From Phycisphaerales bacterium UBA1845 (GTDB lineage: Bacteria > Planctomycetota > Phycisphaerae > UBA1845), in the NCBI GenBank assembly GCA_002338715.1, contig DDIR01000092.1, positions 1 to 20,750 on the forward strand: a stretch of DNA of 20,750 nt. The letters are read 5' to 3'. Both the position numbers and the translations under genes were made by a program. The number at the start of each line of letters is the position of its first letter. The first letter of the stretch is position 1. The notes below the pieces were generated by a model that did no database searches, had not been told where the DNA came from, and worked only from the letters and a program-made list of their open reading frames with translations. Positions 1,426 to 20,157 of this stretch are shown in pieces.

Positions 1426-1430
1426 CGCTG

Positions 1431-1436
1431 TCCTCC
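1431..1436 (-). promoter_or_regulatory. Shine-Dalgarno deciding the transposase start
   Basis: GGAGGA on the minus strand, 5 nt before the ATG at 1425. It argues for that start over the upstream TTG at 1452. Confidence 0.6.
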
Positions 1437-1624
1437 ATGACAAACCGAACAAAGCAATACGCCCTTATGATATCACGCGATGAAGAGTTTCACCACGGAC
1501 TGATAGGGCGACGCACACAATGAATCGCGCAGCGGTCATCGCCCATGTCAAATGCACGACATTCATTAGTAGACTCCTTCGTACTCTGCCGTGATGCAGC
1601 GGCCCCATGATCATCCGCTTGCTG

Positions 1625-5050: not shown

Positions 5051-5057
5051 AACAAAA

Positions 5058-5063
5058 CCTCCC
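5058..5063 (-). promoter_or_regulatory. Shine-Dalgarno of protease copy 1
   Basis: GGGAGG on the minus strand, 7 nt upstream of the ATG at 5050, within the 40-bp gap between the two protease genes. It decides the start and implies independent re-initiation within the operon. Confidence 0.65.
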
Positions 5064-5090
5064 AATTACTGAGCAGTTCACGCACTCTCG

Positions 5091-8000
5091 CTACTGCTGA
5101 AATTCCAAAAGGACCAACTCGAAGTTGTCTGCATATCCGTCGTTGAATTCACCGTCCGGACCGTTGAAGGTGACGTCGACGTGCATCTCAAATGTCCCGA
5201 AGGGCAGGTAGTCGACGACTTCGACGGGCAGCAGACCTGTTTCGTCCTCGCGCTCCAATCGCGTGACCGACGGCAACTTGACTTGATCCAGAATTTGTTC
5301 ATTCGCGTCCACGAACGTCAGTGTCGCCGACGCGCTGTCGCTTTCGCCAAGGTATCCACCCAGATATGCCGCGAATCTGAATTTGGCGCGCCCTTCATAG
5401 ATGGGTTGTTGCCAGTCGGGTGCAACAAAAATGGATTGCCGCATGCCGCTTATCTGATTGTTACCGCCGGCGAAGAGGTGGAATCCGCGATTGTCGGGAC
5501 CGGGCCCTGTTGTTGACGGGTACCCCTCCTGATCGTCATAGAAATAAAGTCTCGGTAGTGGCAGGTCGCCAAACGCAGACCACTCGGACAAATCTTCCTC
5601 ACCCAGGACAACCTCAGCGCCGGGGTTCAAGATCAAATTCTCACTCGTGCGGGATGGTGCGACGTCATCCCACTCGAGGTCGAGCAGCATCTCATCTTCA
5701 CTGGAAGGCATCAGCGGGGTCACCCGCAGGGCATAGATTTGATCTTGCACGGTCGAAAGTAGGTCCAATCGCTCCCCCAAACCCGATTGCGCCTGACCTT
5801 GAGCGATGAAGTTATTGTCGAAGTCAAACAGTTCCAGATGCAGATTCGGGTTGCCCACATCTATGGCACTGAATGCGCGGTCAGCGGCAAACACCAAAAG
5901 CTCTGGAAAACGGATCGCGCGCTCAACCGGGTCGCCAGGATGAAGTACGGTATAGACATGGTCGCGAGCGAGAATGGGAAGGCGCAAACGGCCCCCGTCT
6001 ACACCATTGCTCAGGGTGTACCGACCCGCTGTTCCAGCAACGGTGACCAGGTAGTAAGCTTCGGAATCCAAGCGCACGGCCAATGGCTGAGCCGCGCAGC
6101 TTCCTCCGCCCAACGAGGCAACCAGCGTCCCCTTGGTATTGTCCGGATTGAGCTTGTTCACGACGAGCGTAAGCGCCGATTCATTGCCAAAAACTTTTAG
6201 GGTCGGGACGCTGCCCAAGAACAGGATATCCGCAAAGGTTGGCGTGACGCCTCGGACGATGTAATGGTCCTGTTCAAAGTTGGAATGCAAATTGACCTGA
6301 ATCGTGAATCGCGGATCAATGCCCAACCTTTTGAGCAGTCCGGAACCCACACGCTTCAGCGAGTAAATCCACTTCGCAGTGGCGTCGGTTTCGTTGGGTT
6401 CATAATCGTCCGGTGCCAATATCGCAGAAGTAAAACTGATCCCGAGGTTGTAGGCATTAATATCCTGGGCATCGATGCCGAGCTGGATTGGTCCTCCTGG
6501 AACACGGTAGACAAATTGGTGTCCACTGCCACCTCCCAACGACCCGTCGCTGACGTATGTGGGCATGCCGCACTCGCCCAAACTTTCTACGTTGAGCAGC
6601 GCGAGATCACCGAGGGTGACAGGGTATTGAAGATTGACCGTCATGGTCGAACTTCCCGGCGACTCAAATTTGAAGTAATCGCGGTCTCGCTCGTCGAGAT
6701 TGAGGTTGGCCTGGTTGTAAGGCGCGGGCGCCGCAAGATCGGTAGGGGTCAGGTCGTTACCGGCGCCGGCGTCAAAGCGATCTTCGACAATGGCAATGTC
6801 AAGAGCTGCACGGCGCAATGCCGAATATGCGTCGATATAACGGGTAACTTGTCCGGCACCGGGATAGGCGGTCGCGCGAATAATCTCGCCAACCTGATCG
6901 CCATTGAGATTCGGATCGATGGCCTTGATCATCGCAGCCACACCGGCGACGAAAGGCGTCGATGCACTGGTGCCGCCAAATGTCGCAGGACTTGCAGGTC
7001 CAGCCGGATTGTTATCGGTGGACGCCGGTTGCGCCATGACCGGGATGTTCGTGGGCGCGAAGATGTCGACGCGTGCGCCAAAGTTTGAGTAACCAATTTT
7101 GGTCGTCACGTCATTAGCGAGCGCGCCGACACAGACCACATGATCTTCGATGCAGGGATGAAAGAACGATGGATCGCTCACTTCGTATCCAGCTGCGGGA
7201 TTGCCCCGTCCGTTGCCTGCGGCGGACAGGAAAACGGTTCGGCTTCCGGCGTCGACCGCATCGCTAATCGGCGTGTGTTCTCGATCATAAATACGGCAGC
7301 CCTGATTGCAGTCGCCGCCAAAACTCATCGACACAACATCGGCGCCCCAAGCAACGGCAGTGCGAATGGCTCGGTTGATCTGATTACGCTGACCATTCAT
7401 CTTGAATAGCATGACGTCTGCAATCTGCCCGCCAGTTCCGGCGTCCCCAAGCATGTTGTTCAAGAATCCCGCCGCGACACTGGCCGCACCAGTGCCATGC
7501 CAAAAGCACGGATTTCCTGTGCCACAGGCAGTCACGTTAGGACCATCAGCGAAATAGTCATCGGCGACGAAATCGTATTGGACGGGATTCGCTGGAAAGT
7601 CGCTGTCTGTACCGCGTGAGCTGCCGTCGGTGTTGAGCCAGAATCCGCCATCGATGATCGCCACCTGTACGCGGCGCTGTATTCCGTGGGCCGCGAGGAA
7701 CTGCCATGCCGCAGTTACATTCGACGCGCTGCCCGACGCTTGAAATCGTGTTGTGGCAAAGGCGTCGGTGAATCCGCCCATCCCGTCGGGTCGTTCCTGG
7801 GTACTTAGGACGGTCATGGGAAACGCCTGGTTGGGATAGCTGACTTGAACAGGAGAAACGTCAAACCCCTCCGCAAACGCCTGAGCGACACCCGAAAACG
7901 TTTGCATTCCTGCTTCTGATGAAAACTCGTACAAGCCTTCAATTCCCGCAGCTGCGCCATTGGCAGCCAAGCCCGCCGCGTCAACCGCGTCGAGATTGAT

Positions 8001-8411
8001 GCGGACCAGATATTCTGTGGGCCGGCGCTGTTCATCGGTCAGCGTGATGCCCAAAGTGGCGGGTGGTTCAGGAACAGCATCGTCGTCAACGACCGAGCCC
8101 TCGAAGCGGTTGAGAAACGCTGTCAAATCTGCATCGCTGGCGGGACGCAACAAAATAAGCCCTTCGAGAAAATCGCTCTGCACGCCTTTGGCATCACGCG
8201 AGCAGGCGACAGTTTGTAGACTTCCCTCTGCGTCGGGTATGGCGGCTTGTTGCGGGGCTAGCTCCGTATTGATTTCCGGCTTAAATCGAGCGCCGGGACT
8301 CGGTGTTGGGCTTGGCGAGGGCGAAGGCGACGGCGTCGGCCCGGCCATTTCATTGCACGCTCCCGCCAAGACAATCAAGACGGTTGAAACAGGCATCAAG
8401 AATCTTCTCAT
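5091..8411 (-). CDS. Lipoprotein-like S8 subtilase, tandem copy 2
   Basis: A 1106-residue paralogue of the downstream protease with the same domain order. It has a signal peptide ending at Cys19 in LAGAC (lipobox-like, Ala at -3), a short Pro-Ser/Thr linker, and a propeptide-like region. The S8 domain has D254 in VAIIDGG, H305 in FWHGTG and S482 in GGTSAST, with SAAGNG supplying the oxyanion Asn. Pre-peptidase C-terminal-like domains start near DRFDAGAG and DDYEPNET. A C-terminal domain (about 925-1106) opens with NLILNPGAE. I placed the start at 8411: GGAG lies 8 nt upstream and translation begins directly with the signal peptide. The frame stays open to 8585, but that 58-residue extension runs out of frame through the stump of a third copy and would hide the signal peptide. 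All three catalytic residues are present, so activity is expected. Confidence 0.88.
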   Translation of the reverse strand: MRRFLMPVSTVLIVLAGACNEMAGPTPSPSPSPSPTPSPGARFKPEINTELAPQQAAIPDAEGSLQTVACSRDAKGVQSDFLEGLILLRPASDADLTAFLNRFEGSVVDDDAVPEPPATLGITLTDEQRRPTEYLVRINLDAVDAAGLAANGAAAGIEGLYEFSSEAGMQTFSGVAQAFAEGFDVSPVQVSYPNQAFPMTVLSTQERPDGMGGFTDAFATTRFQASGSASNVTAAWQFLAAHGIQRRVQVAIIDGGFWLNTDGSSRGTDSDFPANPVQYDFVADDYFADGPNVTACGTGNPCFWHGTGAASVAAGFLNNMLGDAGTGGQIADVMLFKMNGQRNQINRAIRTAVAWGADVVSMSFGGDCNQGCRIYDREHTPISDAVDAGSRTVFLSAAGNGRGNPAAGYEVSDPSFFHPCIEDHVVCVGALANDVTTKIGYSNFGARVDIFAPTNIPVMAQPASTDNNPAGPASPATFGGTSASTPFVAGVAAMIKAIDPNLNGDQVGEIIRATAYPGAGQVTRYIDAYSALRRAALDIAIVEDRFDAGAGNDLTPTDLAAPAPYNQANLNLDERDRDYFKFESPGSSTMTVNLQYPVTLGDLALLNVESLGECGMPTYVSDGSLGGGSGHQFVYRVPGGPIQLGIDAQDINAYNLGISFTSAILAPDDYEPNETDATAKWIYSLKRVGSGLLKRLGIDPRFTIQVNLHSNFEQDHYIVRGVTPTFADILFLGSVPTLKVFGNESALTLVVNKLNPDNTKGTLVASLGGGSCAAQPLAVRLDSEAYYLVTVAGTAGRYTLSNGVDGGRLRLPILARDHVYTVLHPGDPVERAIRFPELLVFAADRAFSAIDVGNPNLHLELFDFDNNFIAQGQAQSGLGERLDLLSTVQDQIYALRVTPLMPSSEDEMLLDLEWDDVAPSRTSENLILNPGAEVVLGEEDLSEWSAFGDLPLPRLYFYDDQEGYPSTTGPGPDNRGFHLFAGGNNQISGMRQSIFVAPDWQQPIYEGRAKFRFAAYLGGYLGESDSASATLTFVDANEQILDQVKLPSVTRLEREDETGLLPVEVVDYLPFGTFEMHVDVTFNGPDGEFNDGYADNFELVLLEFQQ

Positions 8412-8419
8412 CAATGTGT

Positions 8420-8423
8420 CTCC
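8420..8423 (-). promoter_or_regulatory. Shine-Dalgarno of protease copy 2
   Basis: GGAG on the minus strand with 8 nt to the ATG at 8411. It supports the short start against the in-frame extension to 8585. Confidence 0.55.
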
Positions 8424-8451
8424 GAAAAACTGACCAGGGTGCGTCATGTCG

Positions 8452-8571
8452 CTACTGCCAAAATTCCCATAGGACCAGCTCAATGTCATTCGTGTCTTCG
8501 TTGTTGAATTCACCCTCCCGGCTAAAGAACCCAACGCCACCGTTTGTCTCAATTGGCGGCACCTTGACTTG
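8452..8571 (-). pseudogene. 3' stump of a third S8 subtilase copy
   Basis: Read on the minus strand in the frame ending at the TAG 8452-8454, this gives QVKVPP..., then EFNNEDTNDIELVLWEFWQ and stop. The end of copy 2 is QVKLPS..., EFNDGYADNFELVLLEFQQ and stop, so the homology is plain at both protein and DNA level. The stump has 39 residues where the paralogue has 64, implying an in-frame internal loss of about 25 codons. Upstream of QVK the similarity ends and a TGA follows. The stump lies 40 bp from the copy 2 start, exactly the gap between copies 2 and 1. It is therefore the remainder of a tandem gene whose body was deleted. Confidence 0.75.
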
Positions 8572-8648
8572 CCGAAACCGCCCATGACGCTGAGCCTTGA
8601 CCGGTCACGATTGTGTTTTTGGAGGATTAATCGCCGGTAGGTGTCACT

Positions 8649-8694: not shown

Positions 8695-8763
8695 GTCGGG
8701 TCGAAGAAATCGGTGGGTTCTTGGAAGCGTTGTCCTGTCCGGCACCCGGAAAGTCGTTTCCTG

Positions 8764-9378
8764 ATGTCACTAGACGTTACTCAGTTACTGCATGCTATTG
8801 CGGACGGACACGATTCCGGTGTGGATGAACTCCTTCCATTGGTTTACGGCGAGCTTCGCAAATTGGCGCAAAGCTTTCTCGAACGCGAACGCGGCGACCA
8901 CACGCTTCAGGCCACGGCGCTGGTGCATGAAGCGTATCTCAAGTTAGTGGATCAACGATCAGCGCGATTGCAGGATCGAACGCACTTCTTTGCTGTCGCG
9001 GCGCAGGCCATGCGACGGATCCTTGTGGACCACGCTCGCACGCATGGTCGGGCCAAACGGGGGGGAGGACTTCAGCGCGTTTCACTCGACGGGCAAGCTG
9101 AGTTAGCCCAGGAACCCGATGTCGATTTGATGACGCTCGATGAAGCGCTTGAACGGCTTGGTGAAGACAGCCCCGAGTCAATCAGAGTCGTTGAAATGCG
9201 ATTCTTCGCCGGGATGACCGTTCAGGAGACGGCAGTTGCCCTGGGTGTGTCTGATAGCACCGTGGAACGCGATTGGCGCTACGCGCGGGCATGGCTCTTT
9301 CGGGAGTTGGCGGACGATCAGGCTGGCAGCGAAGGAGCCGGGTTCAATGACGCACCCGAATCACCGTCGCGCGGCTGA
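8764..9378 (+). CDS. ECF sigma-70 factor, Sig-70_X6 type
   Basis: A 204-residue alternative sigma factor that would redirect RNA polymerase to a specific promoter set. Region 2 spans roughly residues 20-95, with the characteristic HTLQATALVHEAYLKLVDQ and the FFAVAAQAMRRILVDHAR block. Region 4 covers about 138-183, with MRFFAGMTVQETAVALGVSD as helix-turn-helix. These motifs match the Sig-70_X6 family, which in Planctomycetes is often paired with Ser/Thr kinases. The ATG at 8764 is preferred because family homology begins there; a GTG at 8713 is possible. The Shine-Dalgarno is weak (GGAAAG). The gene overlaps the kinase frame by 32 nt, implying translational coupling and control by phosphorylation rather than by a classical anti-sigma factor (inference). 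Confidence 0.9.
   Translation: MSLDVTQLLHAIADGHDSGVDELLPLVYGELRKLAQSFLERERGDHTLQATALVHEAYLKLVDQRSARLQDRTHFFAVAAQAMRRILVDHARTHGRAKRGGGLQRVSLDGQAELAQEPDVDLMTLDEALERLGEDSPESIRVVEMRFFAGMTVQETAVALGVSDSTVERDWRYARAWLFRELADDQAGSEGAGFNDAPESPSRG
9332..9337 (+). promoter_or_regulatory. Shine-Dalgarno of kinase inside the sigma factor gene
   Basis: AAGGAG lies 9 nt before the ATG at 9347, within the last codons of the sigma factor gene. It supports the ATG over the longer frame beginning at 9236. Confidence 0.6.
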
Positions 9379-12300
9379 TCTATTCAAGGCCGCACTGGAT
9401 TTGGATGCAGGGGCGCGATCCGCTTTTCTCGACGCCCAGTGCGCCGATGAGCCCGACCTGCGCAGCGAAGTCGATTCTCTGTTGGAAGCCGACGTTTGTG
9501 CCGATCAGTTTCTGTCCGCGCCTCCCGAACGGGTACGCGCGCTCGCGGCTCAGTCGGACGCGATGGTAGGGCAACGGTTGGGTGGTTATAGGATCGTAAG
9601 GCGCATCGCCGTCGGTGGCATGGGGGCGGTTTATGAGGCGGTTCAGGAACAATTGGGGCGGACCGTCGCGCTCAAGGTGGTTCGAAGTGGATCCACCACT
9701 GATTCAGCGCTTCGTCGATTTGAATATGAGGCCAGGTTTCTCGCGCGTCTTCGACACGTGGCGATCGCGCAGATTTATGAGGCAGGAACCCATACGACGG
9801 GTGGCGCGACCCTGCCGTACTTCGCCATGGAGTATGTTCCCAACGCCCAAACGCTTGTTCAGTATTCAGACGAACATGGTTTGTCAAAGCGGCAGCGACT
9901 TGAGCTTTTCGTTCAGGCATGCGACGCGGTTCAATATGCCCATCAACTGGGCGTCATCCATCGCGACCTAAAACCCAGCAATATTCTTGTCGGGCACGAT
10001 TCGACTACCGCAAGCGACGAGCCTGAATATCGGGCGACTCTAAAGGTGATTGATTTTGGCGTCGCGCGGTTGGTTCAATCGGACTTCGCCGTTACCTCAA
10101 TGCACACCGCTTATGGACAACTCCTGGGAACACTTCAATACATGAGCCCGGAGCAGTGTGGCGCCGACCCCGAGGCTATCGACATCCGCAGCGATGTGTA
10201 TTCGTTGGGCGTTGTGCTGTACGAATTGCTGGCCGGTCAATTGCCCTACGACGTCCAACGTTTGAGTTTGGTGGATGCGGCGCGCGTGATCGCGCAGGCG
10301 CCACTACCGCGAATTGGGGCACTGACTCAAACCTCTCACGGCGACCTGGACACCATCGTAAGAAAAGCCATGGAAAAGGATCGCGAGCGCCGCTATCGAA
10401 CTGCCGCGGAATTGTCCGACGATATTCGCCACTACCTTCGCAACGAGCCAATCGCGGCGCGCCCACCCAGCATGACCTATCTGCTAGGCGCCTTCGCCAG
10501 GCGCAACAAGGCAATGGTGACAGGTCTGGTCGCCGTTCTCCTCGTGCTGGTGGGCGGCATTGCCACGACAAGCTGGCAGGCTTCCCGCGCCCGTGCCTCG
10601 GAACGAATCGCGCGGGAAAGCCTTCGCGACCTTTACGTGGCGCGGGCACGCTCCCTTCGCTACTCGCAATTGGCCGGACAGCGCACGGCGGCGATGGATG
10701 CACTTTCCAAAGCTGCAGCAATTCGGCCCGACCCGGACCTGCGCGACGAAGTCATGACCACGCTCTCGGTTCCCGACGTTCGTGAAACGACTTTCCCCCT
10801 GCCCGATGGAAGCATCAGTGCCGTGTTGAGCCCAGATCTGTTGCAATACGCGGCTACACTTGCTGATGGTTCGATTCAGATTGGTGGAGTGAAAGACGGC
10901 CGTCAGCGTGCTCGAATTCCGCCGCCAGTTGATCCGGTTTTGAATCCCATAAAACTCTGGTGCAACCAACAGTTCGTCATTCGACTCTTTGACAGAGATC
11001 AAAAGCCGCGCCGACTGGAGCTTTGGCGCGTTGATAACCCCGCCATGATCCTGGAGGTTTCGGACATACCAGATCGCGCCTCGTTTGACGTGTCGGCGGA
11101 CGAAACGACGCTGGCCATAGGTCGCAGCGATCATGCAATTCACTTTTACGATTTGTTGACCGGTCAAGAGACGCGCCGAATCGAATTGGATCGTGATCCG
11201 TCTTACCTCCAATTCGATCCGACCGGACGACGCATTGCGCGGTTTCATGCGCGCGATTCACAAGCAAGCATCCTCGATCTTGAGACGCAGGAATCTGCAC
11301 GCATTTTCGAGGGATCGAACATTGCGTTCGCCGTGGCGTGGAGTCCGGACGGAAAAATCATCGCCGGATCAGAAGACTACCTGATTCGAATTTGGGATGT
11401 TGACAAACATCGCGAAATCGCGGTTCTACCGGGACACGAATCGGGAGTTGTTCACCTGCGGTTTTCACATGATGGGCGTTTGTTGGTTTCATACGGCTGG
11501 GACGGAAAATCCATCATCTGGGAATTAGCGACGCTACGACCCCTGCTTCGACTCGACGTTCAGACCCCTGCGTTCAGTTCGGACGATCAGACGCTAGCCG
11601 GGTTGGTAAGCCGCGAAGGGAAGTTCACCGTCAACATCCTCGATATGCTCAATGGCGACTACTTTGATTTTGTGAGTACCGAACTCGGAATCGAAGCGGC
11701 AGTAGGCAGCGGTTCCGCTGTGCATCCCAATGGGCGCATCGCCGTATGCGGTGTTCACCGGCGGGCGGATGAATCGTCCGGATTGCAATGTTTCGATGTC
11801 GCGCAACGGACCTGCATCGGGAGCGTAAGATGCGGGAAAGTCGAAACCATGCGATTCAATTCGATCGGCACGTCGCTTTATACCGCGGGTCGCGATGGGC
11901 TCATCAAGTGGCCTGTCCGGATCGACCAGAATGCGGTGCGATTTGGTCCGCCCCAAATTCTTTTGGCCGACGAGAATGCAGAACAATTCGATGTTTCGGC
12001 GGATGGCGCTATCATCGCCTCGGTGTCGTGGGTCAATCAGACCATTACGTTTCTTGACGCGCAGTCGGCAAAATTTAACACCCACAACGCTTTGACGAAT
12101 GCCCGTAGCGTCGCACTTTCACCCAATGGCAGATGGGCGGCGGTGACCACGTGGCAAGGCGCGGGCTGCGAAATCTGGGACGTCAATTCCCAAACAGTAG
12201 TCGCACGCCTCGATGTATCGGGGAGTGCGATGCCGGCATTTAGCCCGGATGGAAAGTGGTTGGCTATTCGTGATTGGTCGGGGATTTCAATTCTGAGAGC

Positions 12301-12676
12301 GCCATCGTGGGATAAGGCGCATAGGATCGACGTGGCGGGATTTACGCGAGTCGGGTTCTCCCGCGACAGCCGGTTGCTAATTGCCAGCGACGAGCAATCG
12401 AAGATCCACTTGATTGATCTCTCCACCGGAAAAACACTAACCTCGTTTTATGGTCCTGGCCAATTGGCTGCGACCGATCCAATGATCACTTCGGATGGTT
12501 TGTTGGTCGCGTTTGCACAGCGCGGCGCTCTCGTACAAATCTGGGACCTTCATGCAATGCGAAAAACACTCGCGTCGCTGCGGCTCGATTGGGATCACCC
12601 AATGTATTTAACTTCGGAAGGGTTTGAGCACCGCAAACCGATAAACTTGACACATGCAAGCTTCCTCCAAAACTGA
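9347..12676 (+). CDS. Transmembrane Ser/Thr protein kinase with WD40 propeller
   Basis: A 1109-residue Hanks-type kinase. A short N-terminal helical segment (about 1-55, RRAADLFKAALDLDAGARS) is typical of planctomycete kinases. The kinase domain spans about 81-366: glycine loop AVGGMGAVYEA, Lys110 in VALKVV, HRDLKPSNIL with Asp207, DFG Asp236, and GTLQYMSPEQ. One membrane helix follows (about 391-409, VTGLVAVLLVLVGG). The rest is a run of about twelve WD40-like blades, for example FSPDGKWLAIRDWSG and SEDYLIRIWDVDKHRE, probably two propellers. All key catalytic residues are present. With the kinase at the N-terminus and one helix, the propeller should lie across the membrane as a sensor or scaffold. 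It overlaps the sigma factor gene by 32 nt and likely acts on it. The signal sensed is unknown. Confidence 0.92.
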   Translation: MTHPNHRRAADLFKAALDLDAGARSAFLDAQCADEPDLRSEVDSLLEADVCADQFLSAPPERVRALAAQSDAMVGQRLGGYRIVRRIAVGGMGAVYEAVQEQLGRTVALKVVRSGSTTDSALRRFEYEARFLARLRHVAIAQIYEAGTHTTGGATLPYFAMEYVPNAQTLVQYSDEHGLSKRQRLELFVQACDAVQYAHQLGVIHRDLKPSNILVGHDSTTASDEPEYRATLKVIDFGVARLVQSDFAVTSMHTAYGQLLGTLQYMSPEQCGADPEAIDIRSDVYSLGVVLYELLAGQLPYDVQRLSLVDAARVIAQAPLPRIGALTQTSHGDLDTIVRKAMEKDRERRYRTAAELSDDIRHYLRNEPIAARPPSMTYLLGAFARRNKAMVTGLVAVLLVLVGGIATTSWQASRARASERIARESLRDLYVARARSLRYSQLAGQRTAAMDALSKAAAIRPDPDLRDEVMTTLSVPDVRETTFPLPDGSISAVLSPDLLQYAATLADGSIQIGGVKDGRQRARIPPPVDPVLNPIKLWCNQQFVIRLFDRDQKPRRLELWRVDNPAMILEVSDIPDRASFDVSADETTLAIGRSDHAIHFYDLLTGQETRRIELDRDPSYLQFDPTGRRIARFHARDSQASILDLETQESARIFEGSNIAFAVAWSPDGKIIAGSEDYLIRIWDVDKHREIAVLPGHESGVVHLRFSHDGRLLVSYGWDGKSIIWELATLRPLLRLDVQTPAFSSDDQTLAGLVSREGKFTVNILDMLNGDYFDFVSTELGIEAAVGSGSAVHPNGRIAVCGVHRRADESSGLQCFDVAQRTCIGSVRCGKVETMRFNSIGTSLYTAGRDGLIKWPVRIDQNAVRFGPPQILLADENAEQFDVSADGAIIASVSWVNQTITFLDAQSAKFNTHNALTNARSVALSPNGRWAAVTTWQGAGCEIWDVNSQTVVARLDVSGSAMPAFSPDGKWLAIRDWSGISILRAPSWDKAHRIDVAGFTRVGFSRDSRLLIASDEQSKIHLIDLSTGKTLTSFYGPGQLAATDPMITSDGLLVAFAQRGALVQIWDLHAMRKTLASLRLDWDHPMYLTSEGFEHRKPINLTHASFLQN

Positions 12677-13462: not shown

Positions 13463-13903
13463 TCACGAATTGGAATGCATCGCAGAATCAGCTCGAACTG
13501 CTAATCGAAGAAACAGGATGAGCAGAAGTGCCAGAATTCCAAAGAATGCCGATGCGGTTATCAACTTTGAAGAGGAAATGCCGAATCTTTCGGCAATCAA
13601 ATCATGGAACACAATTCTTTGGAAAACCCGCACAACGAACAATCCAACAAATCCCCAGATGATTGGCTGATGGCGAAGTGGCCGCAGTGCGGCTGCACCG
13701 GCTGCTACGCCCAAAGCCATCATGAATGCGCCTAGGGGCCGAAGCATGTACTGCATTTGAGGTTCAATCTCTACGGTGACCCCGTAGAGCGTCGCCATAA
13801 AGCCTTGAAGACGCTCCGAAAGCGCAATCGCAGCCCCAAGGGCGACATGCGAAGCGCTGATAAACCAAAGTAGAACTTGTAGACTTCGGTAAGCAGAATT
13901 CAT
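13463..13903 (-). CDS. Small four-helix integral membrane protein, unknown function
   Basis: A 146-residue protein with four predicted membrane helices (about 8-28, 54-73, 79-97 and 114-134). The loop between helices 3 and 4 carries charged residues (FQRIVFHDLIAERFG). The layout resembles small DUF4345-like membrane proteins, but I do not recognise it with certainty and assign no function. GGAG at 13913-13916 (minus strand) is 9 nt upstream of the ATG at 13903, a good start signal. It is divergent from the radical SAM operon across a 72-bp gap, so the two may share a control region. A role with the operon's product, for example handling or transport of a lipid-like compound, is speculation from position only. 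Confidence 0.75.
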   Translation of the reverse strand: MNSAYRSLQVLLWFISASHVALGAAIALSERLQGFMATLYGVTVEIEPQMQYMLRPLGAFMMALGVAAGAAALRPLRHQPIIWGFVGLFVVRVFQRIVFHDLIAERFGISSSKLITASAFFGILALLLILFLRLAVRADSAMHSNS

Positions 13904-13975: not shown

Positions 13976-15403
13976 ATGAAGAAGCTCAAAATCGCATTGA
14001 TCAGTCCCAAGGGACCACTCTACCGCAAGAAGGGCGGCATCTTTGGTCGTTCCCTCCGTTACAAGCCGTTAACATTGCCAACTCTAGCCGCCCTCCTGCC
14101 AAGCGAAATAGATATTAAATTAACTTGTATCGACGAAGGGATTGAGGACGTTGATCCAAATCTGGATGCCGATCTAATTGGGATGACGGTAATTACGGGA
14201 TGTGCACCTCGGTCCTATGAGCTGGCGGCTATGTTCCGACGAAGGAACATCACGGTCGTTCTCGGGGGGCCCCATATCACGCTCGTTCCGGATGAAGCAC
14301 AATCTCATGCGGATGCCATTGTTGTCGGTTCTGCGGAAGAAGAGTGGCCGCGTTTGGTGCGTGATTTTGTTCAAGGCAAGCTTCTCAGTCGATATGTCCA
14401 ATCTCCGAACCTTGATCTTGCCGGATCGCCGCGGCCCGACCGATCGGTGCTCCCCAGACGCGCATATCTAACTGACGACGTGTTTGAAGCGACGCGCGGG
14501 TGTGTTCACGATTGCGATTTCTGTGTCGTGCCTGCAACGTCGGGACGCCGACCATTTCAACGACCGGTGGGCGAAGTTTTCGACGACATCATCAGTCATG
14601 GAAGTAAGACAGCCATATTCGTAGACCCTAACCTCATTGCCGATCGTACCTATGCAATGTCTCTGTTCAAGGCAATTACACCGCTAAAGATTCAATGGTA
14701 CGGTTTGGCGACAACTCTCTTGTGCCAGGACATTCCTCTCCTCGATGCCTGTGCGGCCAGCGGATGTCGCGGATTGCTAATGGGTTTTGAATCGCTGTCT
14801 TCCAAGAATCTGGACCAATCAAGAAAAGGATTCAATCGGCCTGAAGAGTATGAAACTGTCGTTGGTCGACTACACGATCGCAGAATTGCACTGCAAGCGT
14901 GCTTTGTATTTGGAATGGATGAGGATGACCTTGGGATCTTCGAACGCACGGCGAAGACTGTGATTGACCTGAAGATTGACCTGCCGAGATTTTCAATTGC
15001 CACTCCCTTTCCAGGCACCGCGCTCTTCGCACGTTTGGAGAGAGAGGGCAGAATCTTGACTCGAAACTGGGAGTTCTATGATGGGCAGCACGCTGTGTTT
15101 CGCCCCAAGAACATGAGTCCGCGTGAGCTTGAACTGGGTACAGAGTCTGCATGGAAACATGCGTACAGCCTGAGAGGGATGGCGCGTCGGATGTGGCACT
15201 CGGCAGCATCGTGGCACGTCGCGCTTGTGACGAATCTGGGGTACAGGCACTATGCCCACAACTTGAAACGCTTTTATACCTGTGACCTTCCCGCGTTTAC
15301 GCCGAACTGGAGCCGATTCGACGATCGTTCTTCGGTTATCGCAAGTTCGGAACTGGTCCAACCGAGCATACGCATATCCTCAACAGCAGGGAGCTCGCGG
15401 TGA
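13976..15403 (+). CDS. B12-binding-type radical SAM enzyme 1
   Basis: A 475-residue enzyme. Residues 1-140 form a Rossmann-like domain of the cobalamin-binding kind (LGGPHITLVPDEAQSHADAIVVGSAEEEWP); the base-off DxHxxG motif is absent, as in many class B members. The radical SAM core begins near 165 with the CX3CX2C cluster motif, C176, C180 and C183 in TRGCVHDCDFC, and includes FVFGMDEDD and ATPFPGTALF. The family makes 5'-deoxyadenosyl radicals and often methylates unactivated carbons or rearranges rings; the substrate here is unknown. First gene of the five-gene operon; its stop overlaps the next start by 4 nt (GTGA). The Shine-Dalgarno is weak (GAGAA). Similar in layout to the next gene, so probably an ancient duplicate. 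Confidence 0.88.
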   Translation: MKKLKIALISPKGPLYRKKGGIFGRSLRYKPLTLPTLAALLPSEIDIKLTCIDEGIEDVDPNLDADLIGMTVITGCAPRSYELAAMFRRRNITVVLGGPHITLVPDEAQSHADAIVVGSAEEEWPRLVRDFVQGKLLSRYVQSPNLDLAGSPRPDRSVLPRRAYLTDDVFEATRGCVHDCDFCVVPATSGRRPFQRPVGEVFDDIISHGSKTAIFVDPNLIADRTYAMSLFKAITPLKIQWYGLATTLLCQDIPLLDACAASGCRGLLMGFESLSSKNLDQSRKGFNRPEEYETVVGRLHDRRIALQACFVFGMDEDDLGIFERTAKTVIDLKIDLPRFSIATPFPGTALFARLEREGRILTRNWEFYDGQHAVFRPKNMSPRELELGTESAWKHAYSLRGMARRMWHSAASWHVALVTNLGYRHYAHNLKRFYTCDLPAFTPNWSRFDDRSSVIASSELVQPSIRISSTAGSSR

Positions 15404-16818
15404 CGGCAATGAAAGACCCATTTCGCCTGACGATTGTTCACCCATGTGTGGGCCGGCGCGTGGGAATGAAGAAATACATCCGCACGTGGTTGATGGAACC
15501 GCTTGCGCCTGCGCTACTCGCCGCATTGGTCCCAGAAGAAGTCGAAGTTTCGTTTTACGACGATCGGCTCGAACCGATTCCCTTTGGCACGCGAACCGAT
15601 CTTGTTGCGATAAGCGTGGAAACGTACACTGCTCGCCGCGCTTACCAGATTGCGACGGAATATCGACGACGCGGTGTGCCTGTGGTCATGGGTGGGTTTC
15701 ACGCGACCTTATGCCCTGATGAGGTTATGCAGCATGCAGAGTCCATTGTCGTCGGCGAGGCGGAAGAATTGTTCCCACAAGTCGTCGACGATTATCGGCA
15801 CAGGACCCCAAAGCGCCGATACGAGTCTTTGGGGCGGCCGCAATTGGGTGTCAAGCCTCGCCGGTCGATCTACGAGGGCAAAGCGTATTTACCAATTCGG
15901 CTGGTTGAGTATTCCCGCGGGTGCCGGTTCAAATGCGACTTCTGTGCTGTTCAGTCGTTTTTTTCTGCAACGCATACGCATCAACCCATTGGTCAAGTCT
16001 TGAGCGAAATAGAAAGCACGCGTGATAGAAGAACGCTTTATTTTTTCATCGACGACAACATCTGCTCGGACCTGGACGCCGCCAAGGAGTTGTTCAGGGC
16101 GTTAATACCGCTTCGCATACGCTGGGTTAGCCAGTCGAGCATAAATGTCGCCTTTGATGATGAGGCGATGCAACTTCTGAAAGCAAGTGGTTGCCAGTGT
16201 TTGCTCATTGGAATTGAAAGCCTGCGGCCTGATGCGCTTGCCGGAATGAACAAGTCGTTCAACCTGATGCGTGGTGGACCGGAAATTGCGTTGTCGAATC
16301 TTCGTAAGTTTGGAATACGTGTCTATGGCACGTTCATGTTTGGTTACGACCACGATTCCGATTCGTCATTCAAGCAATCGATCGAATTTGCAACGCAACA
16401 GGAAATGTTCATCGCGGCGTTCAATCATGTTACCCCGTTTCCTGGCACGCCGTTGTATCGTCGCCTGAAATTCGAGGGCAGGCTCCTTTTCGATGCCTGG
16501 TGGAATGACCCCGGCTACAGTTATAATATGGTTCCATTTCAACCGGCATCGTGTAGTCCGGAAGAACTCTCGCAGAATTGCGTGCGCGCAAGACGCCAAT
16601 TCTATTCGATTCCGAGCATCATCAAACGTGCAATCGGTAAAGCGAATCGCGCGGACTTGCTGATGTTGGCGAGATACTTCATCATTAATGCAATGCACAG
16701 ATCGGACGTTTCAGGCCGCAATGGCCTACCGCTGGGAGACGCTGCGTGGAAAGGCCCGTTCTTGCCAATTCAGATGCAGAAACAAAGCTTGTCCGGATAC
16801 TCGATGCCCATTGCTTAA
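15400..16818 (+). CDS. B12-binding-type radical SAM enzyme 2
   Basis: A 472-residue homologue of the preceding gene. The N-terminal B12-binding-like domain contains MGGFHATLCPDEVMQHAESI and VVGEAEELFP. The iron-sulfur motif is C175, C179, C182 in SRGCRFKCDFC, followed by FFIDDNICSD, LLIGIESLRPDAL and TPFPGTPLYRRLKFEGR. I chose the GTG at 15400 because GGGAG (15386-15390) lies 9 nt upstream and the codon overlaps the previous stop; an ATG at 15409 is the alternative. The downstream GNAT frame starts inside this gene, overlapping it by 73 nt. Likely performs a second radical step, such as methylation or C-C bond chemistry, on the same pathway intermediate (inference). Sequence divergence from enzyme 1 suggests different sites or substrates. 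Confidence 0.88.
   Translation: MTAMKDPFRLTIVHPCVGRRVGMKKYIRTWLMEPLAPALLAALVPEEVEVSFYDDRLEPIPFGTRTDLVAISVETYTARRAYQIATEYRRRGVPVVMGGFHATLCPDEVMQHAESIVVGEAEELFPQVVDDYRHRTPKRRYESLGRPQLGVKPRRSIYEGKAYLPIRLVEYSRGCRFKCDFCAVQSFFSATHTHQPIGQVLSEIESTRDRRTLYFFIDDNICSDLDAAKELFRALIPLRIRWVSQSSINVAFDDEAMQLLKASGCQCLLIGIESLRPDALAGMNKSFNLMRGGPEIALSNLRKFGIRVYGTFMFGYDHDSDSSFKQSIEFATQQEMFIAAFNHVTPFPGTPLYRRLKFEGRLLFDAWWNDPGYSYNMVPFQPASCSPEELSQNCVRARRQFYSIPSIIKRAIGKANRADLLMLARYFIINAMHRSDVSGRNGLPLGDAAWKGPFLPIQMQKQSLSGYSMPIA
16734..16738 (+). promoter_or_regulatory. Shine-Dalgarno of the first GNAT-like gene
   Basis: GGGAG, 7 nt upstream of the GTG at 16746, inside the second radical SAM gene. It decides for the long start, which gives an unusual 73-nt overlap. 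Confidence 0.55.
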
Positions 16819-17861
16819 GTTCGATCGAAGCTTCTCGAATCAACAAAGTTCTATCGCAACCCATGGGGGGGCGGATTCGATTGAGCTTTCAAGACAAGCC
16901 TGGGCACATTAATCCGTGTAAGCGCGAGACTCTTGTGTTGCTTGAGTCCCAAGGCGGCCGAGTCCACGGCGTCGGCGGGCGCAAAGTTCTTGATGTCTGG
17001 TATGATGGCCGCAAAGCGCAAGTCGGATATCTGCACCGATTCCGAGGAGAATCTCGAATTGGATGGAACTTTGAATCCATCAAGCAAGGCTTCGACATGC
17101 TGCTCGACTCGCGCACTGACAATCAACTCGACTTTGATGTCACCAGCATCGCCTCAGACAACACGGCGGCCCGGCGTCTGCTCGAACGAAATCTTCCGGG
17201 CATGCCGATATATCACCCGCTCTGCGGCTACACGACTTTTGTTCTGACAACCCGCCGATCTGGGACTGTTTCGTCGGACTCCGAACCAATGGATGACACG
17301 GTCATTGCAGAGATCGAATCGCTCCAGCAGCAGTACGCTAGCGCGATACAATTCGCACCAAGTTATTCAATGGTCCGCTTGCTTTCTGTGATCCCGGCCC
17401 AAGACTGGATTCTGGTCCGACGGGGCGGCCGGATCGTTGCAGCTGCGGGAATGTGGAATCAGCCTCCAACTGAACAGATTCGCGTTGCCGGTTACGATTC
17501 TCTTCTGTCGGCAATGCGTCCTCTCCATAACGTTTTAGCGAGACTGTTGAACAAGCCCACATTGCCGCCAGCGGATTCGAATTTGCCCATGGCGTTTCTT
17601 GCATTCGCTGCGTTTGATTCTCCCCATCCATCAGATGTGTTGCTGCTTATCCGGCGTGCGATGCTGCATGCCAGAAACCTTGGGTTGGCTTACCTCGCAT
17701 TCGGAGCCACAGAAGGCGCGCCCCTGTATCGGATCGCGCTTAAACATTTTCGCCCCTGGAAATTTGCAACGACGATATATGCGGTGACGCGATCGGGTCG
17801 TCAAACCGTCGATGGCATCCAGCGAGCTGCAAGCGTGGGGTTGGAGGCGGCGCTGCTATGA
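16746..17861 (+). CDS. GNAT-like acyltransferase 1
   Basis: A 371-residue protein with a two-lobed GNAT-like plan. The N-terminal lobe (about 20-175) has the recurrent pattern PMGGRIRLSFQ, VHGVGGRKVLDVWYDG, VGYLHRFRG; a C-terminal lobe spans about 190-350. The classical acetyl-CoA R/QxxGxG/A loop is degenerate, so acetyl transfer is not assured; other acyl donors or a structural role are possible. The GTG at 16746 is supported by GGGAG 7 nt upstream and because family-like sequence starts before the next candidate, an ATG at 16863. That makes a 73-nt overlap with the radical SAM gene. The stop overlaps the next start (ATGA). In this operon it probably transfers an acyl or amino-acyl group (inference). 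Confidence 0.7.
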   Translation: MERPVLANSDAETKLVRILDAHCLSSIEASRINKVLSQPMGGRIRLSFQDKPGHINPCKRETLVLLESQGGRVHGVGGRKVLDVWYDGRKAQVGYLHRFRGESRIGWNFESIKQGFDMLLDSRTDNQLDFDVTSIASDNTAARRLLERNLPGMPIYHPLCGYTTFVLTTRRSGTVSSDSEPMDDTVIAEIESLQQQYASAIQFAPSYSMVRLLSVIPAQDWILVRRGGRIVAAAGMWNQPPTEQIRVAGYDSLLSAMRPLHNVLARLLNKPTLPPADSNLPMAFLAFAAFDSPHPSDVLLLIRRAMLHARNLGLAYLAFGATEGAPLYRIALKHFRPWKFATTIYAVTRSGRQTVDGIQRAASVGLEAALL

Positions 17862-18589
17862 AGGCGGAAGTTCAACCAACTATGCAACTTCAGGAGGCAG
17901 ACAAAGCCGGCATGTTTCGTTTACTTGATATGCATTTTTTGCATGCACGACGTGAGGATTTTGAAGCGGACCTGGCCAACAAGAACTGGGCAGTGATCGT
18001 GCGAAATCGAGACGGAGCGATTGTGGGGTTTTCCACGATGGCGCTGTACCGGAGTTCGTGCAACAGGATCGCCGACCCCGTACTCTGTTCAGGGGACACC
18101 ATTGTCGATCGAACGGCAAGGAGTTCATCGCGATTTCTGTCCGCGTGGCTTCACGCTGTTCTCCGTCTTCGCCGCGAATACGGCTGCGAGAAGCTTTATT
18201 GGCTTTTGATTGTGTCAGGGTTTCGTACGTATCGCCTCTTGCCCGTATTTTGGCGTGAATACTTCCCGCGATATGACGCCCCAGTGCCTGCGGGCACACT
18301 CGCGACGATGCGGGACTTAGCCGGCGAGCGATTTGGTGATTCATTCGATCCATCTAGCGGCATTGTTCATCTCCCAAACACGCAGATTCTTCGGCATCCC
18401 GTAGACGCTGACCCGAGCGGGAAAGCAAGCGATCCGCACGTTGCATTCTTTGGTGAAGCCAATCCGGGGCATATTGTCGGTGACGAATTGGTGACGCTGA
18501 CTGAACTGAGCGAAGCCAATCTGACGAGAGCTGGACGGCGGTTGATCCGGGAGTCGGTGGGTGGCCTGTTCACGGGAGCACATCAATGA
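17858..18589 (+). CDS. GNAT-like protein 2, unknown substrate
   Basis: A 243-residue protein with a GNAT-like core: LLDMHFLHARREDFEADLAN, NWAVIVRNRDGAIVGFSTMA, SGDTIVDRTA, then YWLLIVSGFRTYRLLPVFWR and a conserved-looking C-terminal block with DPHVAFFGEANPGH. I recognise the layout as a hypothetical family related to acyltransferases but cannot name a reaction. The start is the ATG of an ATGA overlap with the previous stop; GGAGG lies 10 nt upstream (17843-17847). Its own stop overlaps the GH3 start in the same way. Strict coupling to both neighbours implies the product is needed in step with them, perhaps as a partner that delivers the acyl substrate to the GH3 enzyme (speculation). Confidence 0.68.
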   Translation: MKAEVQPTMQLQEADKAGMFRLLDMHFLHARREDFEADLANKNWAVIVRNRDGAIVGFSTMALYRSSCNRIADPVLCSGDTIVDRTARSSSRFLSAWLHAVLRLRREYGCEKLYWLLIVSGFRTYRLLPVFWREYFPRYDAPVPAGTLATMRDLAGERFGDSFDPSSGIVHLPNTQILRHPVDADPSGKASDPHVAFFGEANPGHIVGDELVTLTELSEANLTRAGRRLIRESVGGLFTGAHQ

Positions 18590-20157
18590 ATATGGCGCAC
18601 TTTGCCAACCGAATGTGGTATGGAGCTAACCTTATCAGATGGAGACGTTTTCGCGAAGCGCTAAAGTCGCCGCTGTCAGCGCAGGTGCGAATACTTCAAA
18701 GTTACGTTAATCGCAACGCTGACACATTGTTCGGACGGAAGCATGGCTTTTCGTCTGTTCGCTCAATCCAAGATTTTCAGAAAGCTGTCCCACTGACAAC
18801 ATATGAAGATTATGTTCCCTTCATTGATTCGATTGGAAGAGGAGCGTCAGATCAAACCACCGCTGATCGAGTTAGTCGTTTGATGCCCACGAGCGGGTCG
18901 TCCGGCGCTATCAAGTTCATACCCTATACGAACAGACTGCAAGCGGAATTCAATCGGGCAATTGGTCCGTGGATTGTTGATCTATTCAAACGGTTTCCAT
19001 CCGCAATGGATGGCCCAGCGTACTGGGCTGTCTCTCCGGCAATTTGTCACAGCGGGGAAACAGGGTGGACGGTTCCTGTCGGATTTGAGGACGACACCAA
19101 GTATCTCGGGGCCTGTCTTAGTCGTCTGGTTGGACAGACCTTAGCGGTTCCGACTGGCGTCAGGCACATTCAAGAAATTTCACTTTTCAAGTTTATCACG
19201 CTTGCCTTTCTTCTTGCTCATCGAAATCTCAGTTTTGTTTCAATTTGGCACCCATCGTATTTAAGCGTCTTGCTCGCGGACCTCGCGGCACATCTAGACA
19301 CAATCATTGGGTGCTTGCAAGACGGCCGGTTGCGCCTCCCTCATGATCTTGACGGCTCTATCCTTCCGGAGATTCACTCGGCATGGAAACGAGATCGTAG
19401 TCGCGCGAAGGAATTGGCTGGCATTGACGTTCGCCAGTGGAACGCCCTGTGGCCAAAATTGTCTGTCATTAGCTCATGGGGGCACGGCGCATCGCAACTG
19501 CCTTGGACCGAGTCCGCGCGAGCATTCCCGTCGACGGTGCATCAGCCAAAAGGTCTGATTGCTACTGAGGCGATCATGACGATTCCATTTCGAAACCGCT
19601 TTCCCCTAGCAATAAATTCTCACTTCTTTGAGTTCATCGACGACACGGGACGTATTCTCACCTGCGATCAACTCAAGGTGGGCAGCGAATATGAAATTGC
19701 AATTACAACGGGAGGTGGATTGTATCGGTACAGGATCGGAGATCGAGTCAGCGTGAATGGCTTTGTCGCGTCCACTCCAAGTCTCGTCTTTGTTGGGAGG
19801 GGGGCGCTGGTCTCTGATATTTGTGGCGAGAAGTTATCAGAAGCATTTGTTGCAAAGTGTATCAATAAGGCACTCGCAGGGACTTTGAAAGGTAAAGTGA
19901 ATTCAGCTAGATTGATTCCGGAACGGAGAAAAGGAGTCGTTGGATATTGCTTGAAGATCCAACTTAAAGCGCCATTGAACGGGGAAACAGCACTCATCGA
20001 GCGCAGAGTGGAGATTGCACTAAAGAAAAATCCGCACTACGCGCTATGTGTCCGCCTAGGGCAACTCGCACCTCTACGCGTTGAAGCGTGTCGATTTCCA
20101 CGTTGCGAAAACGACACCGCAATAAGCAAAAAACCCTGCATCTTTGGAGAATATTGA
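18586..20157 (+). CDS. GH3-family acyl-adenylating amide synthetase
   Basis: A 523-residue member of the GH3 'auxin-responsive promoter' family, firefly-luciferase-like adenylating enzymes. GH3 proteins activate a carboxylate with ATP and join it to an amine, usually an amino acid; in plants they conjugate hormones. Visible motifs are the phosphate-binding loop PTSGSSGAIKFIPYT (101-115), GLIATEA (323-329), GLYRYRIGDRV (378-388, nucleotide binding) and FVGRG...DICGEKLSE (402-418), opening the mobile C-terminal lobe. Length is normal for the bacterial branch (plants about 580-610). The start overlaps the previous stop (ATGA), with GGGAG 7 nt upstream. It closes the operon and likely performs the final amide-forming step. 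The acyl and amine partners cannot be read from sequence. Confidence 0.9.
   Translation: MNMAHFANRMWYGANLIRWRRFREALKSPLSAQVRILQSYVNRNADTLFGRKHGFSSVRSIQDFQKAVPLTTYEDYVPFIDSIGRGASDQTTADRVSRLMPTSGSSGAIKFIPYTNRLQAEFNRAIGPWIVDLFKRFPSAMDGPAYWAVSPAICHSGETGWTVPVGFEDDTKYLGACLSRLVGQTLAVPTGVRHIQEISLFKFITLAFLLAHRNLSFVSIWHPSYLSVLLADLAAHLDTIIGCLQDGRLRLPHDLDGSILPEIHSAWKRDRSRAKELAGIDVRQWNALWPKLSVISSWGHGASQLPWTESARAFPSTVHQPKGLIATEAIMTIPFRNRFPLAINSHFFEFIDDTGRILTCDQLKVGSEYEIAITTGGGLYRYRIGDRVSVNGFVASTPSLVFVGRGALVSDICGEKLSEAFVAKCINKALAGTLKGKVNSARLIPERRKGVVGYCLKIQLKAPLNGETALIERRVEIALKKNPHYALCVRLGQLAPLRVEACRFPRCENDTAISKKPCIFGEY

What the first reader, a model, noticed from the sequence alone, without database searches (positions are those of the whole stretch)
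13976..20157. Five-gene coupled operon: two B12 radical SAMs, two GNAT-like proteins and a GH3 amide synthetase
All four junctions overlap (4, 73, 4 and 4 nt) and each internal gene has a good Shine-Dalgarno inside its predecessor. This means the five products are made together and probably act in one pathway. Radical SAM modification of a scaffold, acyl transfer and GH3-type amidation do not correspond to a biosynthetic pathway I can name, so this is the best candidate here for an undescribed system making an acyl amide or modified lipid conjugate. Sequence shows the genes and overlaps; the pathway is inference.
Basis: partly seen in the sequence, partly recalled or inferred. Interest (0 to 1): 0.8.

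Follow-up and report, generated by a model that had tools for sequence, protein, structure and literature searches.

The report
Conserved five-gene fatty-amide pathway cassette
A tightly packed set of five bacterial genes, found in the same order in several unrelated bacterial phyla, looks like a pathway with no known product that joins fatty acids to amines, and one of its enzymes is shaped like the N-myristoyltransferase long thought to be special to eukaryotes.

The parts
13976..15403 (+). rSAM1: B12-binding-domain radical SAM protein (475 aa)
   Evidence: PF02310 34.8 bits (cut-off 32.1), PF04055 27.9 bits (just under its cut-off of 29.5); CxxxCxxC in 36 of 36 rows
15400..16818 (+). rSAM2: B12-binding-domain radical SAM protein (472 aa), paralogue of rSAM1
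   Evidence: PF04055 46.5 bits, PF02310 36 bits; 33% identical to rSAM1 over 371 columns; CxxxCxxC in 41 of 41 rows
16746..17861 (+). GNAT1: NMT-type double-GNAT acyltransferase (371 aa), ending ...EAALL at the fixed C-terminal Leu
17858..18589 (+). GNAT2: single-domain GNAT acyltransferase (243 aa); with GH3 the most widely shared part
18586..20157 (+). GH3: ATP-dependent acyl-amide ligase of the GH3 family (523 aa)
   Evidence: PF03321 124.8 bits, PF23571 68.6 bits; in a set of 32 rows made only of cassette GH3s, SH-aLRT 100
13463..13903 (-). possible sixth part: small predicted membrane protein (146 aa), divergent neighbour
   Evidence: relatives beside the cassette in L006/L029 (41%), L076 (48%) and L151 (39%); no Pfam hit; membrane nature judged by eye

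Best explanation
The five genes are a conserved, co-inherited biosynthetic cassette that makes a fatty-acyl amide (an N-acyl amino acid or aminolipid type of molecule) whose carbon skeleton is altered by two radical-SAM enzymes. Proposed working: (1) GH3 activates a carboxylic acid with ATP as acyl-AMP and joins it to an amine. (2) GNAT1, an N-myristoyltransferase-type double GNAT, transfers a long acyl chain from acyl-CoA or acyl-ACP to an amine or hydroxyl, with its C-terminal Leu carboxylate as general base. (3) GNAT2 makes a further acyl transfer. (4) rSAM1 and rSAM2, with or without B12, modify an unactivated carbon of the chain or head group. Shown: the genes, their conservation and co-occurrence, the predicted folds, and the fixed C-terminus of GNAT1. 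Inferred: every substrate, the order of steps, C-terminal catalysis and the product class.
For: Cassette complete, in the same order and on one strand, in 17 of 22 non-cyanobacterial GNAT2 loci. Within the class, GNAT2 and close rSAM2 relatives occur in the same ten of 397 genomes, with all five families together in 10 of 11 loci, two of them rearranged but still adjacent. GH3-anchored test in the phylum, 40 loci chosen by me: of 19 stronger matches (220 bits or more) 14 have GNAT2, 15 GNAT1 and 8 both rSAMs; of 21 weaker ones 0 have any of the four. GH3 tree. All ten pairs of distance matrices correlate, r 0.55-0.91, no shuffle of 2000 as high. Lipid chemistry: GH3 is related to OlsH, shown to make N-acyl ornithine (PMC12493201). 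Relatives often add a fatty acid desaturase, PAP2, Rieske, SnoaL-like, AurF-like or hexapeptide proteins. One cyanobacterial counterpart (L024) has an OlsE-like hydroxylase (66.5 bits against a cut-off of 475). GNAT1 matches acyl-chain-using NMTs and its C-terminus does not vary in position.
Against: No substrate or product evidence of any kind. GH3 is far below the OlsH cut-off (57.7 of 620 bits), so ornithine is not supported as the amine. The rSAMs are missing from some relatives with GNAT1, GNAT2 and GH3 (L143, L144, L146, L147, L153) and from nearly all cyanobacterial loci (L025 has one weak rSAM2 match, 26%), so they cannot be needed for a core reaction shared by all. Four of the 19 stronger-matching GH3s show none of the four partners (L145, L148, L149, and L154 on a 3.7-kb contig). 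The window's genome shows no relative of the desaturase or Rieske proteins (empty answers are weak). GNAT1 shares no detectable sequence with NMT (one of 22 rows matched NMT_C at E 0.18). Correlated distances may partly reflect descent of the organisms rather than of the cassette.
Confidence: 0.6

Rival explanations
1. A variant of the planctomycete ornithine-lipid pathway: GH3 is an OlsH that makes lyso-ornithine lipid, the GNATs replace OlsI as O-acyltransferase, and the rSAMs decorate the lipid.
For: All 20 GH3s of alignment A4 match NF052613 OlsH at E <= 0.001; OlsH/OlsI is a proven GH3 lipid pathway in planctomycetes (PMC12493201); one cyanobacterial cluster has an OlsE-like hydroxylase.
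Against: 57.7 bits against a cut-off of 620. No alpha/beta-hydrolase (OlsI) or methyltransferase (OlsG) among the five genes. The cassette-type GH3s are split with SH-aLRT 100 from 21 other planctomycete GH3s; but none of the eight of those that I scanned reaches the OlsH cut-off, so a true OlsH was not placed in the tree.
Confidence: 0.15
2. A peptide- or protein-lipidating system: GNAT1 acts like eukaryotic NMT on the N-terminus or a lysine of a peptide, and the rSAMs modify a ribosomal peptide (RiPP-like lipopeptide).
For: NMT fold; bacterial tandem GNATs that acylate lanthipeptides exist (PMC13060382, passages); weak NCBIfam matches of the rSAMs to RiPP enzymes ApyD and rSAM_ocin_1.
Against: The five genes overlap end to end, leaving no room for a precursor gene between them; no RiPP-type neighbour was seen among the proteins scanned around the cassette, but these were a selection and small ORFs were not searched systematically. 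GH3 ligases act on small molecules (established knowledge).
Confidence: 0.12
3. A small non-lipid amide natural product: GH3 joins an aromatic or other acid to an amine, the GNATs acetylate it, and the rSAMs methylate it.
For: The GH3 relatives with solved structures are plant enzymes named for indole, benzoate and jasmonate acids; GNAT2's fold is shared by acetyltransferases.
Against: Desaturase, fatty acid hydroxylase, PAP2 and Mpo1-like partners in relatives point to lipids; the NMT fold binds long acyl chains.
Confidence: 0.1
4. A chance or generic operon: unrelated genes that happen to lie together.
For: The four other genomes of the same genus show no GNAT1 or GNAT2 match, so it is not a fixed part of this lineage.
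Against: Same order across several phyla, correlated distances, and identical ten-genome presence of GNAT2 and rSAM2.
Confidence: 0.02

Closest known systems
OlsH/OlsI/OlsG ornithine lipid pathway of Singulisphaera acidiphila (PMC12493201)
   Same: GH3-family ligase in an operon with acyl-transfer and modifying enzymes, in planctomycetes; OlsH makes N-acyl ornithine from ATP, fatty acid and ornithine
   Different: GH3 far below the OlsH cut-off; GNATs instead of the alpha/beta-hydrolase OlsI; two radical SAM proteins; no OlsG
Rieske-containing CylC/AurF-type orphan clusters of cyanobacteria (PMC8406957)
   Same: what I take to be these clusters share GNAT2 (40-49% identical) and, in 31 of 57 loci, a GH3 in view; the 14 cyanobacterial GH3s put in the tree fall on the cassette side; Rieske, AurF-like and hexapeptide partners also occur beside some rSAM cassettes
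   Different: no rSAM pair and, except in L083, no GNAT1 found; Rieske, ferritin-like, ferredoxin and hydroxylase genes that the window lacks; product unknown there too (as of 2021)
Eukaryotic N-myristoyltransferase (NMT) and the bacterial NMT-type double-GNAT models reported in PMC12219266
   Same: GNAT1 has the double-GNAT fold over its full length and a C-terminus that is the last aligned residue against NMTs
   Different: no detectable sequence similarity; gene context is small-molecule or lipid biosynthesis; peptide substrate not indicated
B12-domain radical SAM enzymes of lipid and cofactor pathways (HpnJ, BchE, ladderane-type TIGR04072)
   Same: B12-binding plus radical SAM architecture; among the best NCBIfam matches of rSAM1 and rSAM2
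   Different: 67 and 88 bits against the HpnJ cut-off of 577.6; no cut-off of any family listed is reached
N-acyl tyrosines (stieleriacines) of planctomycetes (PMC12479983, passages)
   Same: fatty-acyl amides made by planctomycetes
   Different: a term search of that paper's text found no GH3, radical SAM, Rieske or GNAT

Membership tests
GH3 acyl-amide synthetases | Pfam GH3 N-terminal and middle domains | tested here: met
   PF03321 124.8 bits and PF23571 68.6 bits, both above the cut-off of 23.6
GH3 acyl-amide synthetases | nucleotide-binding motifs corresponding to SSGTSQGRPK, YGSSE and GLYRYRLGD (as quoted in PMC12493201) | tested here: inconclusive
   read by eye in alignment A4: TSGSSGAIKFIPY and GGGLYRYRIGD are recognisable in the window; the second motif diverges (IATEAIMTIP)
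OlsH (lyso-ornithine lipid synthetase) | NCBIfam NF052613 equivalog cut-off of 620 bits | tested here: not met
   57.7 bits; 20 of 20 rows of A4 match, best E 9.9e-33; 10 further GH3s score 61-132 bits
OlsH (lyso-ornithine lipid synthetase) | operon with OlsI (alpha/beta-hydrolase) and OlsG | tested here: not met
   none of the five genes matches an alpha/beta-hydrolase or methyltransferase family
OlsH (lyso-ornithine lipid synthetase) | ornithine and fatty acid as substrates | not testable with these tools
   needs an enzyme assay
N-myristoyltransferase (NMT) | double-GNAT NMT fold | tested here: met
N-myristoyltransferase (NMT) | chain ends at the active site (C-terminal carboxylate as base, PMC4964394) | tested here: inconclusive
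   model residue 371 is the last aligned residue in all 50 listed rows, with chain residue 496 in human and 455 in yeast NMT, which name as the C-terminal residues; 52 of 52 rows end in the same column. Geometry and catalysis were not measured
N-myristoyltransferase (NMT) | sequence membership in the Pfam NMT families | tested here: not met
   window 0 hits; 1 of 22 rows matches NMT_C at E 0.18, while 4 of 22 match Acetyltransf_1, best E 0.0013; no NMT among PDB sequences by profile
N-myristoyltransferase (NMT) | acylates N-terminal glycine of proteins with myristoyl-CoA | not testable with these tools
   needs an assay
B12-dependent radical SAM enzymes | CxxxCxxC cluster motif | tested here: met
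   36 of 36 rSAM1 rows and 41 of 41 rSAM2 rows
B12-dependent radical SAM enzymes | N-terminal B12-binding domain PF02310 | tested here: met
   34.8 and 36 bits, cut-off 32.1
B12-dependent radical SAM enzymes | cobalamin really bound and used | not testable with these tools
   the best solved relative of rSAM2 is AprD4 (6fd2, 35 bits); needs an experiment
Rieske-containing CylC clusters | two to four Rieske proteins and a CylC/AurF homologue (PMC8406957) | tested here: not met
   none among the window proteins scanned; present in many cyanobacterial relatives

The most novel reading that the evidence does not exclude
A horizontally spread pathway, present in at least six bacterial phyla, makes a so far unknown class of fatty-acyl amide lipid on a GNAT2-GH3 core that is combined with radical-SAM enzymes, with oxygen-using Rieske and AurF-like enzymes, or with both. 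Its GNAT1 is a bacterial N-myristoyltransferase-type enzyme that uses its C-terminal carboxylate as catalytic base on a small molecule, so the enzyme of eukaryotic protein myristoylation would share its root with a bacterial lipid-making enzyme.
Probability: 0.3. Interest if true: 0.9.

Novelty: new variant of a known kind. Interest (0 to 1): 0.72.

Why it matters
It gives a biosynthetic context to bacterial NMT-type proteins, which PMC12219266 reported as predicted structures. It links product-less Rieske/CylC-type clusters of cyanobacteria, through the shared GNAT2 and GH3, to radical-SAM cassettes in other phyla. It extends bacterial GH3 chemistry beyond ornithine lipids. Because GNAT2 and GH3 occur in named cyanobacterial strains (L066 Planktothrix rubescens PCC 7821, L077 Microcystis wesenbergii FACHB-1317; GNAT2 alone in view in L011 Chlorogloeopsis fritschii PCC 6912), a product can be looked for directly. 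A catalytic C-terminal carboxylate outside eukaryotic NMT would be a second case of what PMC4964394 calls unique to NMT within the GNAT superfamily.

Tried and rejected
Sequence search of the GNAT1 profile against the PDB gave only two nanobody chance hits. Protein search with the GNAT1 alignment gave 9 proteins, as only 7998 word-sharing candidates were scored. Ten proteins flanking the cassette in L032, L045, L060, L063, L070, L074, L079, L080 and L084 were scanned: helicase, ABC transporter, sigma factors, peptidase M55 and alpha/beta-hydrolase in one locus each (sigma factors in two), the rest without a hit; the core was therefore taken as the five genes. Own-genome searches for desaturase and Rieske relatives were empty. 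Stieleriacine biosynthesis was considered and set aside. Promoter and terminator scans gave nothing above chance. OlsH membership was tested and not met. Other double-GNAT folds for GNAT1 are not excluded: NMT entries fill the 50 rows shown. OlsH could not be placed in the GH3 tree because no sequence above its cut-off was in hand.
Full report
What is there. The window is one whole contig (G000:C110, 20750 bases). Five ORFs run 13976-20157 on the + strand with overlaps of 4, 73, 4 and 4 nt. Pfam gives B12-binding plus radical SAM for genes 1 and 2 and GH3 for gene 5. Genes 3 and 4 have no sequence-family hit. rSAM1 and rSAM2 are paralogues, 33% identical.

Anchor (a), GNAT2 across species. A scan of the genome collection found 196 relatives and kept the best 80. 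By record title, 58 of the 80 are cyanobacterial and 22 are not. Of the 22, 17 hold rSAM1-rSAM2-GNAT1-GNAT2-GH3 in that order and on one strand: L009, L015, L029, L045, L059, L060, L064, L069, L070, L072, L074, L076, L078, L079, L080, L084, L087 (L072 has a Rieske gene between the rSAMs, L076's rSAM2 appears in two pieces, L078's rSAM2 has an internal stop). The other five: L046, L057 and L058 begin at a contig end inside the cassette, L063 shows only a piece of rSAM2 and no rSAM1, and L032 shows rSAM1 in two pieces and no rSAM2. The taxa by title are Verrucomicrobiota, Acidobacteriota, Gemmatimonadota, Planctomycetota and Pseudomonadota. All 22 are metagenome assemblies, so some names may be wrong. 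In the 58 cyanobacterial loci no rSAM1 was found; L025 has a weak rSAM2 match (26%) and L083 a GNAT1 (24%).

Anchor (b), the class. GNAT2 occurs in 10 of 397 genomes. Eight further loci were fetched; with the window, L006 and L007 that makes 11 loci in ten genomes. All five families lie together in 10 of the 11 (GNAT1 found with relatives' sequences as queries). In L102 and L104 the rSAM pair is transcribed opposite to GNAT1-GNAT2-GH3, so the link survives rearrangement. The eleventh, L106, starts inside GNAT2 at a contig end and shows GNAT2-GH3. A separate search with rSAM2 found matches of 355 bits or more only in these same ten genomes; the next best match has 264 bits (at most four candidates per genome were scored). 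The other four genomes of the window's genus show neither GNAT1 nor GNAT2, which suggests gain by transfer or repeated loss.

Anchor (c), GH3 in the phylum. 107 of 392 genomes match. I chose 40 of the listed places and fetched their surroundings. Of 19 with tblastn scores of 220 bits or more, 14 have GNAT2, 15 have GNAT1 and 8 have both rSAMs (L142 has rSAM2 at a contig end); L145, L148, L149 and L154 show none of the four. Of the 21 below 200 bits, none has any of the four. A tree of 84 GH3s splits 63 rows (cassette, cyanobacterial and allied) from 21 others with SH-aLRT 100. Those 21 are 20 of the weaker loci (L166 was partial and left out) plus the window genome's own second GH3 (C47, 30% identical). 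L147 (broken) and L155 were not put in the tree. The window falls in a set of 32 rows, all cassette members (100). The label 'cassette' needs six changes on the tree, because rSAM-less and cyanobacterial rows are nested among the cassettes. So the rSAM pair is usual but not required: L143, L144, L146, L147 and L153 show GNAT1, GNAT2 and GH3 without it.

Co-inheritance. In 26 loci with one clean copy of each gene (L029, L099, L101 and L137 left out as near-duplicates), all ten pairwise distance matrices correlate, r 0.55 to 0.91, and none of 2000 shuffles reached the observed value for any pair. Shared descent of the organisms may account for part of this.

Wider context. Counted over 25 loci (23 of the 80, L083 included, plus L006 and L007; L006 and L029 are the same place), the neighbourhood holds Rieske in 10, fatty acid desaturase in 10, PAP2 in 9, SnoaL-like in 8, an unknown 350-aa family in 7, hexapeptide protein in 3 (identities) and an AurF-like protein in 2. 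Twelve of the 25 show none of these (L006, L029, L032, L046, L058, L063, L074, L076, L079, L080, L084, and L057 with too short a contig); some of these are cut. In 57 cyanobacterial loci GNAT2 is accompanied by Rieske (54), ferritin-like (51), AurF-like (49), ferredoxin (44), fatty acid hydroxylase (35), hexapeptide (32) and GH3 (31; often near the edge of the fetched stretch). One such hydroxylase is OlsE-like (66.5 bits, cut-off 475). This gene set fits the 'Rieske-containing' CylC clusters which PMC8406957 (passages) describes as associated with no known natural product; the count shows no mention of GH3 in that paper. That they are the same clusters is my inference from the gene content. 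The further inference is one family of lipid pathways on a shared GNAT2-GH3 core.

What is not shown. No substrate, product, order of steps or B12 use has been shown. The paper searches cover open-licence PMC papers only, so an unseen description elsewhere is possible.

Noticed in passing
window 13463-13903 (-): Small protein divergent from the cassette; relatives sit beside the cassette in L006/L029, L076 and L151 (39-48% identical), so it may be a sixth part.
   Followed up: partly
window 1625-8585 (-): Two neighbouring subtilase-family (PF00082) proteins of about 1150 aa that look like tandem paralogues.
   Followed up: no
window 8713-12676 (+): ECF sigma factor (PF07638) followed by a protein kinase with WD40 repeats.
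   Followed up: no
window 43-1452 (-): Transposase (DUF772/DDE) at the contig end.
   Followed up: no
L002 1363-3123 (G000:C47): A second GH3 in the same genome, 30% identical, between a TruB-like and a malate dehydrogenase-like gene (names by eye); it belongs to the other GH3 clade.
   Followed up: partly
L009 3268-6056 and L079 3183-5980: Two extra rSAM2-like genes before the cassette, in a Gammaproteobacteria and a Gemmatimonadales bin (same strand in L009, opposite strand in L079).
   Followed up: no
G199:C49:2244-8619: Four tandem rSAM-like genes (three of them 42-43% identical to rSAM2) on a contig apart from GNAT2-GH3 in the same genome.
   Followed up: no
L024 8225-8638 and 16381-17133: Cyanobacterial Rieske-type cluster holds an Mpo1-like protein and an OlsE-like hydroxylase, hints that its unknown product is an aminolipid.
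   Followed up: partly
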